From contig JAPPPQ010000051.1 of the NCBI GenBank assembly GCA_028817435.1, positions 62,001 through 126,000 on the forward strand: 64,000 nt of DNA, read 5' to 3'. The position numbers were made by a program, and so were the translations under genes. Position 1 is the stretch's first letter. Every line of letters begins with the position of its first letter. Source of the DNA: Deltaproteobacteria bacterium. GTDB taxonomy: Bacteria; Myxococcota_A; UBA9160; UBA6930. The notes under the pieces were generated by a model. It worked only from the letters and a program-made list of their open reading frames with translations, had not been told where the DNA came from and did no database searches. This document shows, piece after piece, positions 32,352 to 43,803 of the stretch.

Positions 32352-33457
32352 GGCTTCTCCCTTTGCAGTGCGGTGGTGTCGCCGGCCAGCAATTGCGCCA
32401 GCGGGCGGCTGCCGCTGAACTTGGAAAGCAGCATTTTCAGCACCGCCGTCATGGGCGTCGCCAGCAGCATGCCCACCACGCCCCACAGCATTCCCCAGAC
32501 AATCAACCCAATCAGCACCGCCACCGGGTGCAGGCCCAGCGAATCGCCCACCAGCTTCGGTTCAAGCACGCTGCCCATGGCGAATTGAATCGCCGCGGGC
32601 AGCACAATGGCCAGCACCGCCGCCACCGGCCCCACTTCGGGCGAGACAATCACCACCGGCAGTGGCAGCAAAGTCGAAATAAGCGAGCCCACATTGGGAA
32701 TGAAGTTCAGCAAGAAGGCCATGACGCCGAAGGCCATGGCCAACGGCACGCCCAGCAAAAACAGCGCGCTCCCCACCAGCACGCCGGTGGCGGCAGAAAT
32801 AAGCAGCTTCGAGACCAGATAGCTTTCCACCTGCACGCGCACCTCGCCCCAAATGCCCGCCGCGCGCCCGCGCGTGCCGCCGCCGGTCACCAGAAACAGC
32901 ACGAAAATCAGCACCAGCAGCGATTGCGAAAACAGGTTGACAATGGCGTTGGCAATTCTCGTCAGCAGCCCGCCGACGGTTTCCACCGGAATGCTGCGCA
33001 ATCGCTCCTGCTCGGTGCCCAGCATCGCGCGAAATTCGCCGGGCAGCCCGTTGTAAAGGCGATCCAGCAATTCGCCCAGTTGCTCGCCGTAAAGATCGGC
33101 GTTGGCGGCAAGCTGCGCCACCGAAGCGCTGAGCAGCGCGCCAAGCCCCGCCAGCGCGCCCAGGCCCAGCAGCGCCACAACAGGCAGGGCCAAGGCCCGC
33201 GGCGCGCGCAGGCGCTGCAGCGTTTCGACGCACAGCCCGAGCCCCAGCGAAATGACGAGAGAGAGCACAAAGGGAATCATCACCGGCCGCAGCCAGCGCA
33301 GTGCGAACGCGCCCGCCACCGTCGCCAGCACCAGCAGGCACACCGTCTGCACCCGCATTTCCCGGCTCGCGGCGCGCCCGCCCGCTCCGCTCACTTCGCC
33401 CGCTCCGCCCGTTTCGCTCACCCGCGCCAGCATAGCCCGGCTGCGCCCCCCGGACAC
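32348..33457 (-). CDS. AI-2E family transporter / PerM-like permease
   Basis: LRWLRPVMIPFVLSLVISLGL..; VGSLISTLLPLPVV; GDSLGLHPVAVLIGLIVWGMLWGVVGMLLATPMTAVLK. Confidence 0.88.
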   Translation of the reverse strand: MSGGRSRAMLARVSETGGAGEVSGAGGRAASREMRVQTVCLLVLATVAGAFALRWLRPVMIPFVLSLVISLGLGLCVETLQRLRAPRALALPVVALLGLGALAGLGALLSASVAQLAANADLYGEQLGELLDRLYNGLPGEFRAMLGTEQERLRSIPVETVGGLLTRIANAIVNLFSQSLLVLIFVLFLVTGGGTRGRAAGIWGEVRVQVESYLVSKLLISAATGVLVGSALFLLGVPLAMAFGVMAFLLNFIPNVGSLISTLLPLPVVIVSPEVGPVAAVLAIVLPAAIQFAMGSVLEPKLVGDSLGLHPVAVLIGLIVWGMLWGVVGMLLATPMTAVLKMLLSKFSGSRPLAQLLAGDTTALQREKP

Positions 33458-33494
33458 GGCGGGAAACCGCCGCCGCCGCGCCTACAATGGCGCC

Positions 33495-34400
33495 ATGCCC
33501 GCGCGCCGGCCGCTTCCCCATTGCACGCTCTTCACCGGCGATAACCTGCAGCTCATGCGCCGCGCAGCCGGCGGCAGCGTAGATCTCATCTACCTCGATC
33601 CGCCCTTCAACAGCCGCCGCCACCACCGCGCGCCCGGCGGGGCCGAGGCCGCGGGCGCAGCGTTCCGGGACGCCTGGACCCCGGAAGATGCGCGGACGCA
33701 GTGGCAGGACGAACTCGAGCGAGCGCGCCCCGGCCTCGCGCAGTTGCTCTGCGCAGTCGCGCGCCGTCCCGGCGACCGCGCCTATCTGCTCTACATGGCG
33801 GTGCGTCTGCTCCAAATGCACCGCCTGCTAAAGCCCGAAGGCTCCATTTACCTGCACTGCGACCCCACCATGAGCCACGCGCTCAAACTGCTGATGGATG
33901 CCATCTTCGGCGACGGCGGCGCAGACCGGCGCGCCCCCGGTTTTCGCAACGAGATTGCCTGGTGCTACGGACTCGGCGGATCGAGCCGCCGCTATTACCC
34001 CAGAAAGCACGACACCATCTTTTGGTATAGCAAGGGCGCGCGCTGGTTCTTCAATCCGCCCATGGTTCCCGCAACCTCCCGCAAACTGCGCGGCAGGCAG
34101 AAGAAGTGCCCCGACCACTGGAACATCCCCGCGCTCAACAATATGTCGAAAGAGCGCACCGGCTACCCCACGCAAAAGCCCCTGGCCCTGCTGCACCGCA
34201 TCATCGCCGCGGGCAGCGCGCCGGGCAGCTTCATACTCGACCCCTTTTGCGGCAGCGCCACCACCCTGCTCGCCGCCCAACTGCTGCACCGCCGCTGGTG
34301 CGGCGCAGACCTCAGCCCCCACGCCACCCACCTGGCCGCCCGCCGCCTCACCCTCGAATCCCCCGGCTGCCAGGTTGCCCTGCGCGCCGTCGAGGGGTGA
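33495..34400 (+). CDS. DNA methyltransferase (N6A/N4C, DPPF before FCGSATT order)
   Basis: MPARRPLPHCTLFTGDNLQLMRRAAGGSVDLIYLDPPFNSRR..; TGYPTQKPLALLHRIIAAGSAPGSFILDPFCGSATTLLAAQLLHRRWCGADLS. ATG at 33495. Confidence 0.88.
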   Translation: MPARRPLPHCTLFTGDNLQLMRRAAGGSVDLIYLDPPFNSRRHHRAPGGAEAAGAAFRDAWTPEDARTQWQDELERARPGLAQLLCAVARRPGDRAYLLYMAVRLLQMHRLLKPEGSIYLHCDPTMSHALKLLMDAIFGDGGADRRAPGFRNEIAWCYGLGGSSRRYYPRKHDTIFWYSKGARWFFNPPMVPATSRKLRGRQKKCPDHWNIPALNNMSKERTGYPTQKPLALLHRIIAAGSAPGSFILDPFCGSATTLLAAQLLHRRWCGADLSPHATHLAARRLTLESPGCQVALRAVEG

Positions 34401-34434: not shown

Positions 34435-34546
34435 AAAAAAGACTTGGGGCACCAGGCCGAGACCTGGTGCCCCGTATCGGGCGGCCTTCCCTTTCGGTAA
34501 GGCCTAGTTGCCGATAAGTCCCCACCTATCGGAATGCCTGATACAA
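34435..34546 (-). ncRNA. tracrRNA of the Cas9 system
   Basis: Minus strand: GTATCAGGCATTCCGATAGGTGGGGACTTATCGGCAAC anti-repeat, then hairpin GGCCTTACC-GAAA-GGGAAGGCC, then terminator GGGGCACCAGG-TCTCGG-CCTGGTGCCCC-AAGTC-TTTTTT. Confidence 0.88.
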
Positions 34547-34547
34547 T
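34507..34547 (+). promoter_or_regulatory. Degenerate CRISPR repeat (complement of anti-repeat) ending in extended -10 TGATACAAT directed at cas9
   Basis: GTTGCCGATAAGTCCCCACCTATCGGAATGCCTGATACAAT aligned to repeat GTTCCGATACCCCACCATCGGAATGCCTGATATACT. Confidence 0.6.
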
Positions 34548-34582
34548 CCCAATGCTGACACACGCAGCGGGGGCAGTCAAGC

Positions 34583-37500
34583 GTGAAATACAGGCTCGGG
34601 CTGGATGTGGGAACCGCCTCTTTGGGCCTGGTTGCCTACAAGTTGGACGCCCAAGGGCGGCCGGTTTCCATCCCCTACCACTCGGTCCGCATCTTCGATG
34701 AGCCGTTGCTACCGCCCGGCCAAGGGGGCGGCATCGGCGAGCTCAAGCAGGCCGCCCGGCGCAAGACTCGACAGCAAATGCGCCTGCATCAGCGGCGCGC
34801 CCGCAGGCTTCGCAAGCTCGCACACCTCGCGCACCTGCTCGGCATTGACCCTGAGGCGGTAGCGCGCCGGAGGAAGCCGCACATCCTCGAGGTTCGCGCC
34901 CGGGCCGCTACGGAAAAGGTGGATTTGGAAGACCTGCTCCGCATTTTCCTGCACCTTTCCAAACGGCGTGGCTATGCCGGAATTTTCCGCGCCGGGAAGG
35001 GTGGCGATATGGGGCAGGTGCAGACGGGAATCGGCGACATCCGGAAGAAGATGGACGAGGCCGGCTGCGAGACTCTGGGGGAGTATCTCTGGCATCGGCA
35101 CCGGCAGGGACAGGATCTGCGTTTGAAGGGCCACGGATTGTATGCCGACAGGGAAATGATCTTCAACGAATTCGACCGAATCTGGGCCAGGCAGGAGAGG
35201 GAGCATAAGCAGCTCTGTGGAGAGCACAAAGGCCGTCCGCTGCGAAAGACATTCGAAGAGGCAATTTTCTACCAGCGGCCCATTCGCATTCTCAGTGCGG
35301 GAAATTGCGAACTGGAGACCAGCCTGCCCCGCTCGCCCTTGGTGCAGCCCGCATATCAGGAATTCCGCATTGAAAAGCAGATTGCAGATTTGCGCTGGGC
35401 GAAAAAGGGTCGGCGCCATCCGAAGCCCCTTGAAGAGCCTGCGAAACAGGTCATTCGCAAACTGCTTTCCGAAAACGAGAGGGTGAAATTCGAGGAGATT
35501 TACAAAGCTCTTGAGAAAACGGGAATTCCCCCTGCACCCGACGAGTATCTGAATTTGTCTGAAGGCGGCCGCGAAGACCTGCACGGGAATGTGACGAATG
35601 CCTGTATGAAGAAGCTCGGCCTGGAGTCAGAGTGGCAGAGTCTCACAGATGGCCACCAAATTGCGGCGCTCAACCTGCTCGCCAACACTGGTTCGCCCGA
35701 TATTTTTTATGCACGGAATTGGCATGAGAATATCCCCAAGGGCAAGAAGCGCGCCGACGGGACGCCTGAATACCGGTGCATTCCAGGCAAAGTGGTGAAT
35801 TTCATCAACAGCATGGTCAAAATGGAGAAACTCGACTGGCTTTCGAAGATGGGTTTCCAAGCCGGGCGTAGCCCGTATTCGATAAAAGCGCTGCGTCGGC
35901 TCACCGCTGCTATGCGGGAACAGAATCTCGACGAAGCAGACGCCAAAGCTCTGTTGTATCCCCGAGCAGCAAAGGCCGTCAGCCGGGGAGAGATGCAGGG
36001 AGAATTGCCGCCCCACCAGCATACGAGGAATGTCGTTGTGGATGTGTCGCTGCGCCAGGTTCGGCGAGAGGTGAATGCCGCCATTCGGAAACTCGGCGGC
36101 CCGCCGGACAGCGTGATCATTGAGCTTTCCAGGGATATGCCGTTGGGCGTGAAGCGCCGCGGAGAGATTGTGGACGGAATCAATAAGAACCAGAGGGCCA
36201 GACAGAAGGCAGCACGGGAAATTGAAAAGGAGACGGGGAAGGCAGCATCGAATGTTGCCATTATGAACTATCTGCTGTGGAGAGAACAGGATGAGCAATG
36301 CCCCTATTGTGGTAAGGATATCAGCTTGCCTGATGCCCTGGACGAGTTGACAACCAATCGCGATCATATTATCCCCCGGTCTATTACGCGGATTGGCAAG
36401 AGCAGGAATTATCTCGTTCTCGTATGTCATTCGTGCAACGACGAGAAGGGAGCGCGGACTCCGAGGGAGAAGTGGGGTGACGACCCCGAGCGCTGGAAGG
36501 TGATTGAAAAGCAGGCAAAGCGGCTTGGGAAGAAAAAGCTGCTCGGGAAAATGCGGCAGATTCTCTCCAGGGAGAGTGGCGAATCGCTGCTCGACGACGA
36601 AGCGATTGGAGATTTCTCCGCTCGTCAATTGCAGGAAACATCATGGATTGCCAAAAGCTGTGCGCAGTGGATGGGGATGATCTGTTCCAATGTGGCGGTG
36701 AGTCGGGGAATTTTGACTGAGTCTCTGCGCCGCAAATGGGGGCTGGATACCGTGATTCCCGAGGTGCGATTGGAAAAGAAGCTGCCCGTTTTTGACAGGG
36801 AGAAGCAACTGATTACGCCGGAAGACTTTGAGCGTCACCGCGCGTATTGGGAGGAAAGGGGAGAAGAGGGGGATTCCGGTAAGACTCATCGCCGAATTGA
36901 CAAGCGCATTGACCATCGCCACCACTTGATAGACGCCTTGGTGATTGGTCTCACCAGCCGTGGCCTCTACCAGAAAATGGCGCAAGCCTACAAAAGGGAG
37001 GCCGAAAGGACGGCTTCTCCTGCCGACCGGCGCAGCATTCCCCTGCGGGCGAAGACTCCGATCGCTGACATTAGAAATCTGGCGCTCGATCTCGTTCGCA
37101 ACTGCAATCTCACACATAAGCGCGACCGATGGCCTGCCGGTCCCTTTTTCGATTTGAATCCTGTTTCGATATATGAAGGGCAATTTTCTCAGCGTTGGGA
37201 ATTGACCAAGCTCGCCAAAAAGCTTTCCGATAAGGTTTCCGACAATCCCGAGAAAAGGGCCAAGGATCTGGCGGCGGGGTTGAAGCAAATCAATAAAATT
37301 GCGAACCCGTCGACCCGCGAAATTGTCAGGCGGGCATATGAAGAGCGCATCTCCACCGGGAAGAGCCCCAAGCAGGCGCTCTCCATGCCGATTCTTGATA
37401 TGCGATTCAATAAGCGATTTGGGACGCAGATTCGGCGGGTTTTGGTGAGATACGATGAGAAGGCCAAGGGACAGATTACCGTGAAGCATGGGCGGAATGG

Positions 37501-37855
37501 GGAATTGAAGAAGTATCTGAAAACGGAGGGATACGCTTGGCTGGAATGGGACGCTCAAAAGGGAGAGGCGCGCCTGGTGACTCTGTATGAGGCTATGAAA
37601 TCCGGCCGGTCGGAAGCGCCGAAGGGGGTTCGTTTCTTCAAGGGCGATACGGTTCTCAATGCCAGTGACGAAAAGCGTTATGTCGTTCGTCATATCAAGG
37701 CCGAGAAGGGTGGGTGCCTGGTTTTGATTCTTCACACTGAAACCAGAGAGGTTAAGCACATGGACAGCGATTCGGGGAAAAAGTGGGTTTCGGGCAAGAA
37801 TTTGTCCAAGCTCAGCTTGATTTCCGATGACTGGCCGCCGCATTCTTCTGAGTGA
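34583..37855 (+). CDS. cas9: CRISPR-associated endonuclease Cas9 (type II-C-like, 1090 aa)
   Basis: RuvC-I YRLGLDVGTASLGLVAYKL; Arg-rich bridge helix ARRKTRQQMRLHQRRARRLRKL; RuvC-II DSVIIELSRDMPLG; HNH CPYCGKDI..NRDHIIPRS..CHSCNDEKG; RuvC-III DHRHHLIDALVIGL. GTG start. Confidence 0.96.
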   Translation: MKYRLGLDVGTASLGLVAYKLDAQGRPVSIPYHSVRIFDEPLLPPGQGGGIGELKQAARRKTRQQMRLHQRRARRLRKLAHLAHLLGIDPEAVARRRKPHILEVRARAATEKVDLEDLLRIFLHLSKRRGYAGIFRAGKGGDMGQVQTGIGDIRKKMDEAGCETLGEYLWHRHRQGQDLRLKGHGLYADREMIFNEFDRIWARQEREHKQLCGEHKGRPLRKTFEEAIFYQRPIRILSAGNCELETSLPRSPLVQPAYQEFRIEKQIADLRWAKKGRRHPKPLEEPAKQVIRKLLSENERVKFEEIYKALEKTGIPPAPDEYLNLSEGGREDLHGNVTNACMKKLGLESEWQSLTDGHQIAALNLLANTGSPDIFYARNWHENIPKGKKRADGTPEYRCIPGKVVNFINSMVKMEKLDWLSKMGFQAGRSPYSIKALRRLTAAMREQNLDEADAKALLYPRAAKAVSRGEMQGELPPHQHTRNVVVDVSLRQVRREVNAAIRKLGGPPDSVIIELSRDMPLGVKRRGEIVDGINKNQRARQKAAREIEKETGKAASNVAIMNYLLWREQDEQCPYCGKDISLPDALDELTTNRDHIIPRSITRIGKSRNYLVLVCHSCNDEKGARTPREKWGDDPERWKVIEKQAKRLGKKKLLGKMRQILSRESGESLLDDEAIGDFSARQLQETSWIAKSCAQWMGMICSNVAVSRGILTESLRRKWGLDTVIPEVRLEKKLPVFDREKQLITPEDFERHRAYWEERGEEGDSGKTHRRIDKRIDHRHHLIDALVIGLTSRGLYQKMAQAYKREAERTASPADRRSIPLRAKTPIADIRNLALDLVRNCNLTHKRDRWPAGPFFDLNPVSIYEGQFSQRWELTKLAKKLSDKVSDNPEKRAKDLAAGLKQINKIANPSTREIVRRAYEERISTGKSPKQALSMPILDMRFNKRFGTQIRRVLVRYDEKAKGQITVKHGRNGELKKYLKTEGYAWLEWDAQKGEARLVTLYEAMKSGRSEAPKGVRFFKGDTVLNASDEKRYVVRHIKAEKGGCLVLILHTETREVKHMDSDSGKKWVSGKNLSKLSLISDDWPPHSSE

Positions 37856-37882
37856 GAACGCCGTTCCCGTGGCCGAGAAAAG

Positions 37883-37925
37883 CCCTCAGAGCTGCGTTAA
37901 ATTGAGCCGCTCTGGGGGTTTTTCT
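37883..37925. terminator. Bidirectional intrinsic terminator between cas9 (+) and CRISPR array (-)
   Basis: CCCTCAGAGC...GCTCTGGGGG followed by TTTTTCT on +; the minus strand of the same hairpin is followed by CTTTTCTC. Confidence 0.7.
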
Positions 37926-37954
37926 ATTATATATCAGATATTTACAGAATTTCT

Positions 37955-38311
37955 AGTATATCAGGCATTCCGATGGTGGGGTATCGGAACTACAGCGAAA
38001 AGGCGGCGGTGGTGGAAACCAGTATATCAGGCATTCCGATGGTGGGGTATCGGAACGCACTTCGCCGAGCAGAACGCTTTGGGCCGAGTATATCAGGCAT
38101 TCCGATGGTGGGGTATCGGAACATACTGCATCGAAATTGCCACACGGCTTGCAGTATATCAGGCATTCCGATGGTGGGGTATCGGAACAGTTCGTGCTGC
38201 CCGAGAGCGCCGTGGCGCAGTATATCAGGCATTCCGATGGTGGGGTATCGGAACAGGACGAGGCCGAACTGGGAATGGAGCACAAGTATATCAGGCATTC
38301 CGATGGTGGGG
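37955..38311 (-). CRISPR. CRISPR array: five identical 36-bp repeats, one 27-bp truncated repeat, five 30-bp spacers
   Basis: Repeat on + AGTATATCAGGCATTCCGATGGTGGGGTATCGGAAC at 37955, 38021, 38087, 38153, 38219; truncated copy 38285-38311. crRNA orientation is minus (GTTCCGATACCCCACCATCGGAATGCCTGATATACT), set by tracrRNA complementarity. Confidence 0.97.
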
Positions 38312-38317
38312 CGCTGG

Positions 38318-43803
<5,486 letters not shown>

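What the first reader, a model, noticed from the sequence alone, without database searches (positions are those of the whole stretch)
34435..34583. Anti-repeat doubles as a probable cas9 promoter: tracrRNA and cas9 are head-to-head over one fossil repeat
Seen: plus-strand 34507-34547 (GTTGCCGATAAGTCCCCACCTATCGGAATGCCTGATACAAT) is a degenerate repeat in crRNA orientation and ends with the extended -10 TGATACAAT, about 35 bp before the cas9 GTG. On the minus strand, TTGACT lies just upstream of the cas9 start codon (34573-34578) and would place a tracrRNA start near 34545. Known: Neisseria II-C repeats carry extended -10 promoters, and S. pyogenes uses a long tracrRNA form to repress Pcas9. Inference: cas9 may be driven by a captured repeat promoter, so tracrRNA and cas9 transcription would interfere with each other.
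Basis: partly seen in the sequence, partly recalled or inferred. Interest (0 to 1): 0.85.

Follow-up and report, generated by a model that had tools for sequence, protein, structure and literature searches.

The report
CRISPR anti-repeat doubling as cas9 promoter
In front of this bacterium's cas9 gene, one short stretch of DNA encodes the start of the tracrRNA guide on one strand and, on the other, the only good promoter-like sequence for cas9, a leftover from a CRISPR repeat; relatives suggest that this promoter is kept where the guide gene sits close to cas9 and lost where it sits far away.

Summary
Plus 34507-34547 is a degenerate repeat (anti-repeat) ending in TGATACAAT, 35 nt before the cas9 GTG. 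The minus-strand TTGACT is real but lies at 34575-34580; with 17 nt to TGT-CAGCAT it would start tracrRNA near 34545. In this 67% GC window the anti-repeat -10 is the only plus-strand site scoring 6.5 or more between 33400 and cas9.

Across 81 related loci with this divergent layout, the tracrRNA promoter beside the anti-repeat is strongly conserved (p = 7e-19). The anti-repeat -10 is kept where the anti-repeat lies near cas9 and lost where it is far (rho -0.48; phylogenetic contrasts r = -0.29, p = 0.009). Changes away from the repeat's own -10 preserve promoter quality only in near loci (window: 99th percentile). Three Neisseria-type loci, with long gaps, have lost the first T of this -10.

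Against: closest relatives keep mostly mediocre hexamers, tracrRNA pairing explains part of the conservation, a stricter phylogenetic subset is not significant, and no transcript data exist. Mutual interference is geometrically possible but untested; five comparable E. coli promoters show none at basal activity. The locus has also lost cas1 and cas2.

The parts
34507..34547 (+). Degenerate repeat in crRNA orientation; its complement is the tracrRNA anti-repeat
34539..34547 (+). Extended -10 TGATACAAT, proposed cas9 promoter; predicted start near 34554 (inferred)
   Evidence: top plus-strand site of 135 positions before cas9; score 8.5
34575..34580 (-). -35 TTGACT of the proposed tracrRNA promoter, between the G-rich ribosome-binding stretch and the cas9 start codon
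34552..34560 (-). TGT-CAGCAT, weak extended -10 of the proposed tracrRNA promoter
   Evidence: positional match to TATGAT or TACGAT in relatives
34435..34545 (-). Predicted tracrRNA
   Evidence: fold z-score -5.35; covarying stems in ten homologues
34435..34473 (-). Terminator hairpin and T run of tracrRNA
34583..37855 (+). cas9, 1090 aa, GTG start
   Evidence: TIGR01865 E 1.6e-106
37955..38311 (-). CRISPR array, six copies, 66-nt period, every copy with TGATATACT
38285..38311 (-). First ('extra') repeat, lacking its first 9 nt but keeping the -10

Best explanation
The segment 34507-34583 is a compact divergent (bidirectional) promoter made from an old CRISPR repeat. On the minus strand, TTGACT-17-CAGCAT drives tracrRNA, which starts at about 34545 inside the anti-repeat (inferred; the promoter is conserved in relatives). 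On the plus strand, the extended -10 that the anti-repeat inherited from its parent repeat (TGATACAAT) drives cas9 from about 34554, giving a leader of about 29 nt (inferred). The two starts lie 9-10 bp apart, so polymerase can engage only one direction at a time; whether this limits either transcript is unknown. More generally, in related type II loci the repeat-derived -10 tends to be kept when the anti-repeat lies within about 60 nt of cas9 and lost when it lies further away.
For: In the window: it is the only plus-strand site scoring 6.5 or more from 33400 to cas9, and one of 16 sites in 64 kb that score at least 8.5. Across 81 loci: anti-repeat -10 score against gap rho -0.48, p 7e-6, while the repeat's own -10 gives rho 0.01; no other offset from -14 to +12 gives as strong a negative trend; phylogenetic contrasts r -0.29, p 0.009; still rho -0.34, p 0.005 without the window clade and the methylotroph-type group. 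TA...T core kept in 21/31 near and 3/18 far loci, p 9e-4. In near loci the anti-repeat -10 is the best plus-strand site in 9 of 37 and among the top three in 19 of 37. Hexamer changes preserve promoter quality in near loci (median percentile 0.76, p 0.007) but not far ones (0.31); window 0.99. tracrRNA promoter at the anti-repeat edge: mean score 8.15 against 4.43 shuffled, p 7e-19.
Against: In the ten-member window clade the plus hexamers are mostly weak (TACGGT, TACGAT, TACGGC, TACGAA). The invariant TGATAC is also the tracrRNA 5' end, which pairs with the repeat and with its own tail, so only positions 4-6 are informative there; outside the window clade those positions average percentile 0.41 in near loci. 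The stricter phylogenetic subset is not significant (r -0.20, p 0.18). No transcript data. The scoring model is E. coli sigma-70.
Confidence: 0.58

Rival explanations
1. The -10 likeness is a passive leftover: TGATAC is kept only as the tracrRNA 5' end, and cas9 is transcribed by read-through from the co-directional methyltransferase gene that ends at 34400, or from a promoter the model does not recognise.
For: The methyltransferase runs in the same direction, 183 nt upstream of cas9. TGATAC pairs with the repeat and with GAUAC in the tracrRNA tail. Weak hexamers in several close relatives.
Against: Does not explain why retention depends on distance to cas9 or why hexamer changes preserve promoter quality in near loci. 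In 15 of 31 other near loci the upstream ORF, called by a crude longest-ORF rule, is on the opposite strand, so read-through is unlikely there.
Confidence: 0.25
2. cas9 is driven by the other strand of the tracrRNA promoter's own -10 (a symmetric -10 shared by both directions), not by the anti-repeat -10.
For: Symmetric -10 elements are common in E. coli (PMC12825309). Near relatives show possible overlapping plus hexamers there, such as TATCGT in L033 and TATATT 31 nt before the start in L166.
Against: In the window the tracrRNA -10 is CAGCAT, whose other strand reads ATGCTG, and no plus-strand site there reaches 6.5.
Confidence: 0.1
3. The plus-strand promoter makes a small crRNA-like or tracrRNA-regulating RNA rather than cas9 mRNA, in the manner of the S. 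pyogenes long tracrRNA or of repeat-driven crRNAs.
For: Repeat-internal promoters start crRNAs in type II-C systems (PMC12080349).
Against: The transcript would enter cas9 within 29 nt and has no further repeat. The best opposite-orientation repeat match upstream of cas9 is at noise level, 17 against 50 for the anti-repeat.
Confidence: 0.05

Closest known systems
Type II-C CRISPR-Cas with repeat-embedded promoters (Neisseria and Campylobacter type)
   Same: Each repeat has its own extended -10, crRNA runs toward cas9, and tracrRNA lies upstream of cas9 (PMC12080349, PMC6282205).
   Different: Here the anti-repeat also keeps the -10 and points it at cas9; in the Neisseria-type loci examined the anti-repeat -10 has lost its first T. 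The window also lacks cas1 and cas2.
Bidirectional promoters of E. coli (Warman, Grainger and colleagues)
   Same: Divergent starts about 10 bp apart with closely packed -10 elements (PMC12825309).
   Different: One direction makes the CRISPR guide scaffold, the other the nuclease that uses it, and the plus -10 comes from a CRISPR repeat. Activity untested.
S. pyogenes long tracrRNA (tracr-L) repression of Pcas
   Same: Would link tracrRNA to cas9 expression.
   Different: tracr-L acts as a natural guide on Cas9 (own knowledge; PMC11417352 seen); no repeat-like segment for that exists here.
Extra repeat that keeps only its promoter in type II-C arrays
   Same: A degenerate repeat retained for its promoter; PMC12080349 suggests this for the first repeat of the array, and the window's own first repeat fits it.
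   Different: The anti-repeat would do so for a protein gene.

Membership tests
Type II-C CRISPR-Cas | Cas9 of about 1000-1100 aa with RuvC and HNH motifs | tested here: met
   1090 aa, RuvC_III, HNH_4 and Cas9_a domains; TIGR01865
Type II-C CRISPR-Cas | Cas9 groups with II-C proteins by phylogeny | tested here: inconclusive
   Closest solved Cas9s include short II-C-like proteins and relatives have the cas9-cas1-cas2 set, but no tree with II-A and II-B references was built
Type II-C CRISPR-Cas | cas1 and cas2 present, no csn2 or cas4 | tested here: not met
   No Cas1 or Cas2 in the held genome, 92% complete; present in relatives, so a reduced derivative of the type
Type II-C CRISPR-Cas | tracrRNA with anti-repeat and terminator | tested here: met
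Type II-C CRISPR-Cas | Promoter inside each repeat | tested here: met
   TGATATACT, score 8.7, in all six copies; by sequence only
Bidirectional promoter | Divergent promoter elements with starts about 10, 18 or 23 bp apart | tested here: met
   Predicted starts 9-10 bp apart, by sequence only
Bidirectional promoter | Transcription detected in both directions from one fragment | not testable with these tools
   No transcript data
tracr-L autorepression | Repeat-like segment 5' of the anti-repeat on the tracrRNA strand | tested here: not met
   Best match scores 17 against 50 for the anti-repeat

The most novel reading that the evidence does not exclude
In many type II-C loci the anti-repeat is a two-strand element: tracrRNA on one strand and, on the other, a cas9 promoter taken over from a CRISPR repeat. 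It is kept by selection while the anti-repeat is close to cas9, so crRNA and cas9 are started by versions of the same repeat promoter, and tracrRNA and cas9 compete for polymerase binding at one site.
Probability: 0.35. Interest if true: 0.72.

Novelty: new variant of a known kind. Interest (0 to 1): 0.57.

Why it matters
How type II-C cas9 genes are switched on is little studied. If the anti-repeat is the promoter, a change in repeat sequence must satisfy RNA pairing, crRNA transcription and cas9 transcription at once, which would constrain repeat evolution. The near/far rule is testable from sequence and by start-site mapping, with Neisseria-type loci as a natural contrast. It also warns that trimming or moving a tracrRNA gene in such systems may remove the cas9 promoter.

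Tried and rejected
Scanning genome contigs with the single protein gave no relatives; an alignment query was needed. A faulty orientation rule mislabelled every array as '+'; orientation was redone. The tracr-L architecture was rejected. Rfam has no match at its gathering score for this tracrRNA. The generic promoter scan lists neither site, because it requires at least 4 of 6 matches in each hexamer. Zhang 2013 and Heidrich 2017, which may hold Neisseria start sites, are not in the library. The restricted phylogenetic contrast was not significant and is reported as a limit. Spacer targets were not searched.

Full report
WHAT IS THERE. The window holds a small type II CRISPR-Cas locus: cas9 (34583-37855, 1090 aa) and a six-copy array (37955-38311, 66-nt period). 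The array's crRNA strand is taken to be the minus strand: read that way, the repeat (GTTCCGATACCCCACCATCGGAATGCCTGATATACT) begins with GTT and ends in an extended -10, TGATATACT, and it pairs with the tracrRNA. Upstream of cas9, plus 34507-34547 is a degenerate repeat in the same crRNA orientation. Its complement is the anti-repeat of a tracrRNA that runs leftward to a strong terminator (34473-34435). The repeat:anti-repeat duplex is -55.2 kcal/mol against -16.3 +/- 3.4 for shuffled anti-repeats. The tracrRNA folds 5.35 SD better than its shuffles, and its stems covary across ten homologues. The genome (92% complete) has this array only and no Cas1 or Cas2, whereas homologues have cas9-cas1-cas2-array.

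TGATACAAT is at 34539-34547, 35 nt before the GTG. In this 66.8% GC window a score of at least 8.5 occurs at 16 of 127,908 positions; the six array repeats and this site account for seven of them. No other plus-strand site between 33400 and cas9 reaches 6.5. The scoring is a simple E. coli sigma-70 model with credit for TG or a -35 element, so it is a guide and not a measurement.

RELATED LOCI. Cas9 loci were collected from GTDB genomes, viral contigs, the window's phylum and the order of the L033 betaproteobacterium. The window Cas9 is closest (37-47% identity) to betaproteobacterial and a few other proteobacterial proteins. In 379 sampled genomes of its own phylum only four others matched, at about 30-35% over parts of the protein, so horizontal acquisition is likely (inference). 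Of 91 loci with a usable repeat, the best repeat match outside the array was upstream of cas9 in the window's orientation in 77; 81 deduplicated loci with such a match entered the tests.

tracrRNA PROMOTER. At the anti-repeat edge, minus-strand promoter scores average 8.15 against 4.43 for shuffles (p 7e-19), with the hexamer most often ending 3-8 nt from the edge. In several loci with very short gaps (L058, L060, L070, L076, L092, L178, L185) the -35 falls inside the cas9 reading frame. The window's own hexamer, CAGCAT, is the poorest of its clade, while its -35, TTGACT, shared with L163, is the best.

cas9 PROMOTER. The anti-repeat -10 cannot simply be called conserved, because the anti-repeat derives from a promoter-bearing repeat and is held by pairing. 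Three tests try to separate these. (1) Across 81 loci the anti-repeat -10 score falls with distance to cas9 (rho -0.48, p 7e-6) while the repeat's own -10 does not, and no other offset gives as strong a negative trend. Phylogenetic contrasts on a Cas9 tree keep the sign (r -0.29, p 0.009), but a restricted set is not significant (r -0.20, p 0.18). (2) The TA...T core is kept in 21/31 near loci (gap up to 60 nt) and 3/18 far loci (p 9e-4). (3) Where the hexamer differs from the local repeat, near loci show promoter-preserving changes (median percentile 0.76 of random mutants, p 0.007; near against far p 0.002), with the window at 0.99. Limited to positions 4-6, which lie outside the window-clade tracrRNA, the window clade averages 0.77 (window 0.96), but other near loci average 0.41. 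So the evidence is good for the window clade and for the overall trend, but not uniform. The loci share ancestry, so the p-values without contrasts are too small.

CONTRAST CASES. Six similar loci (L058, L060, L070, L076, L079, L092; several from methylotrophs) have anti-repeats ending in TTACACT 27-29 nt before the cas9 ATG. Neisseria-type loci (L181-L183, recognised by their repeat) have gaps of 110-133 nt and have replaced the first T of TACAAT by A or G. L181 and L183 have a TATATT site 34 nt before the start; in L182 the best site is 90 nt before it. L178 and L185, which fall next to them in the Cas9 tree, have gaps of 30-31 nt and carry TACAAC and TACAAT. This is what the near/far rule predicts.

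LIMITS. In the ten-member window clade most plus hexamers are mediocre, and the invariant part of TGATAC is also the tracrRNA 5' end, which pairs with the repeat and with a GAUAC in the tracrRNA tail, with G-U changes keeping the pairs. The upstream methyltransferase gene runs in the same direction as cas9, so read-through is an option in the window. In 15 of 31 other near loci the upstream ORF is on the other strand, by a crude longest-ORF rule that misassigned the window itself. Repeats for L034, L035, L039 and L163 were taken from partial arrays or borrowed from relatives.

INTERFERENCE. Predicted starts at about 34545 (minus) and 34554 (plus) are 9-10 bp apart, close to the 10-bp class of E. 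coli bidirectional promoters. In that study basal activity of all five promoters tested was too low for polymerase competition, which appeared only on activation (PMC12825309). Mutual exclusion follows from geometry if both promoters are active, but functional interference is not established.

VERDICT. A real and compact two-strand element. The tracrRNA promoter is well supported; the cas9 promoter role is more likely than not for the window; interference is open. I found no paper in the open library that says a type II-C anti-repeat serves as the cas9 promoter, but key Neisseria papers were not available, so priority cannot be claimed.

Noticed in passing
37856-37954: cas1 and cas2 are missing between cas9 and the array, although close relatives carry them there; no Cas1 or Cas2 was found in the held genome, so the array is probably frozen.
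   Followed up: yes
38285-38320: The first array repeat lacks its first 9 nt but keeps TGATATACT, and it directly abuts the stop codon of purB on the same strand, so purB read-through could also feed the array. This fits the 'extra repeat' described in PMC12080349.
   Followed up: partly
34435-34545: The tracrRNA 5' end GUAUC pairs with GAUAC in its tail in all ten clade members, with G-U changes keeping the pair in L164, L165 and L039; this could compete with pairing to the 3' end of the repeat.
   Followed up: partly
34583-37855: The Cas9 is nearest to betaproteobacterial proteins while the genome's own phylum nearly lacks it, which suggests horizontal transfer; the host phylum was not identified.
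   Followed up: partly
L181-L183: Neisseria-type anti-repeats carry AACAAT or GACAAT where the repeats have TACAAT, so the promoter copy next to tracrRNA appears disabled.
   Followed up: yes
37926-37945: Past the far end of the array, the minus strand reads CTGATATATAATA, similar to the 3' end of the repeat and scoring as a promoter (TAGAAA-18-TATAAT) pointing toward the cas9 3' end; possibly a repeat remnant.
   Followed up: no
33102-34400: A DNA methylase (PF01555) gene lies just upstream of cas9 in the same direction; its ORF as listed overlaps an AI-2E transporter gene on the other strand, so its true start is probably after 33457.
   Followed up: no
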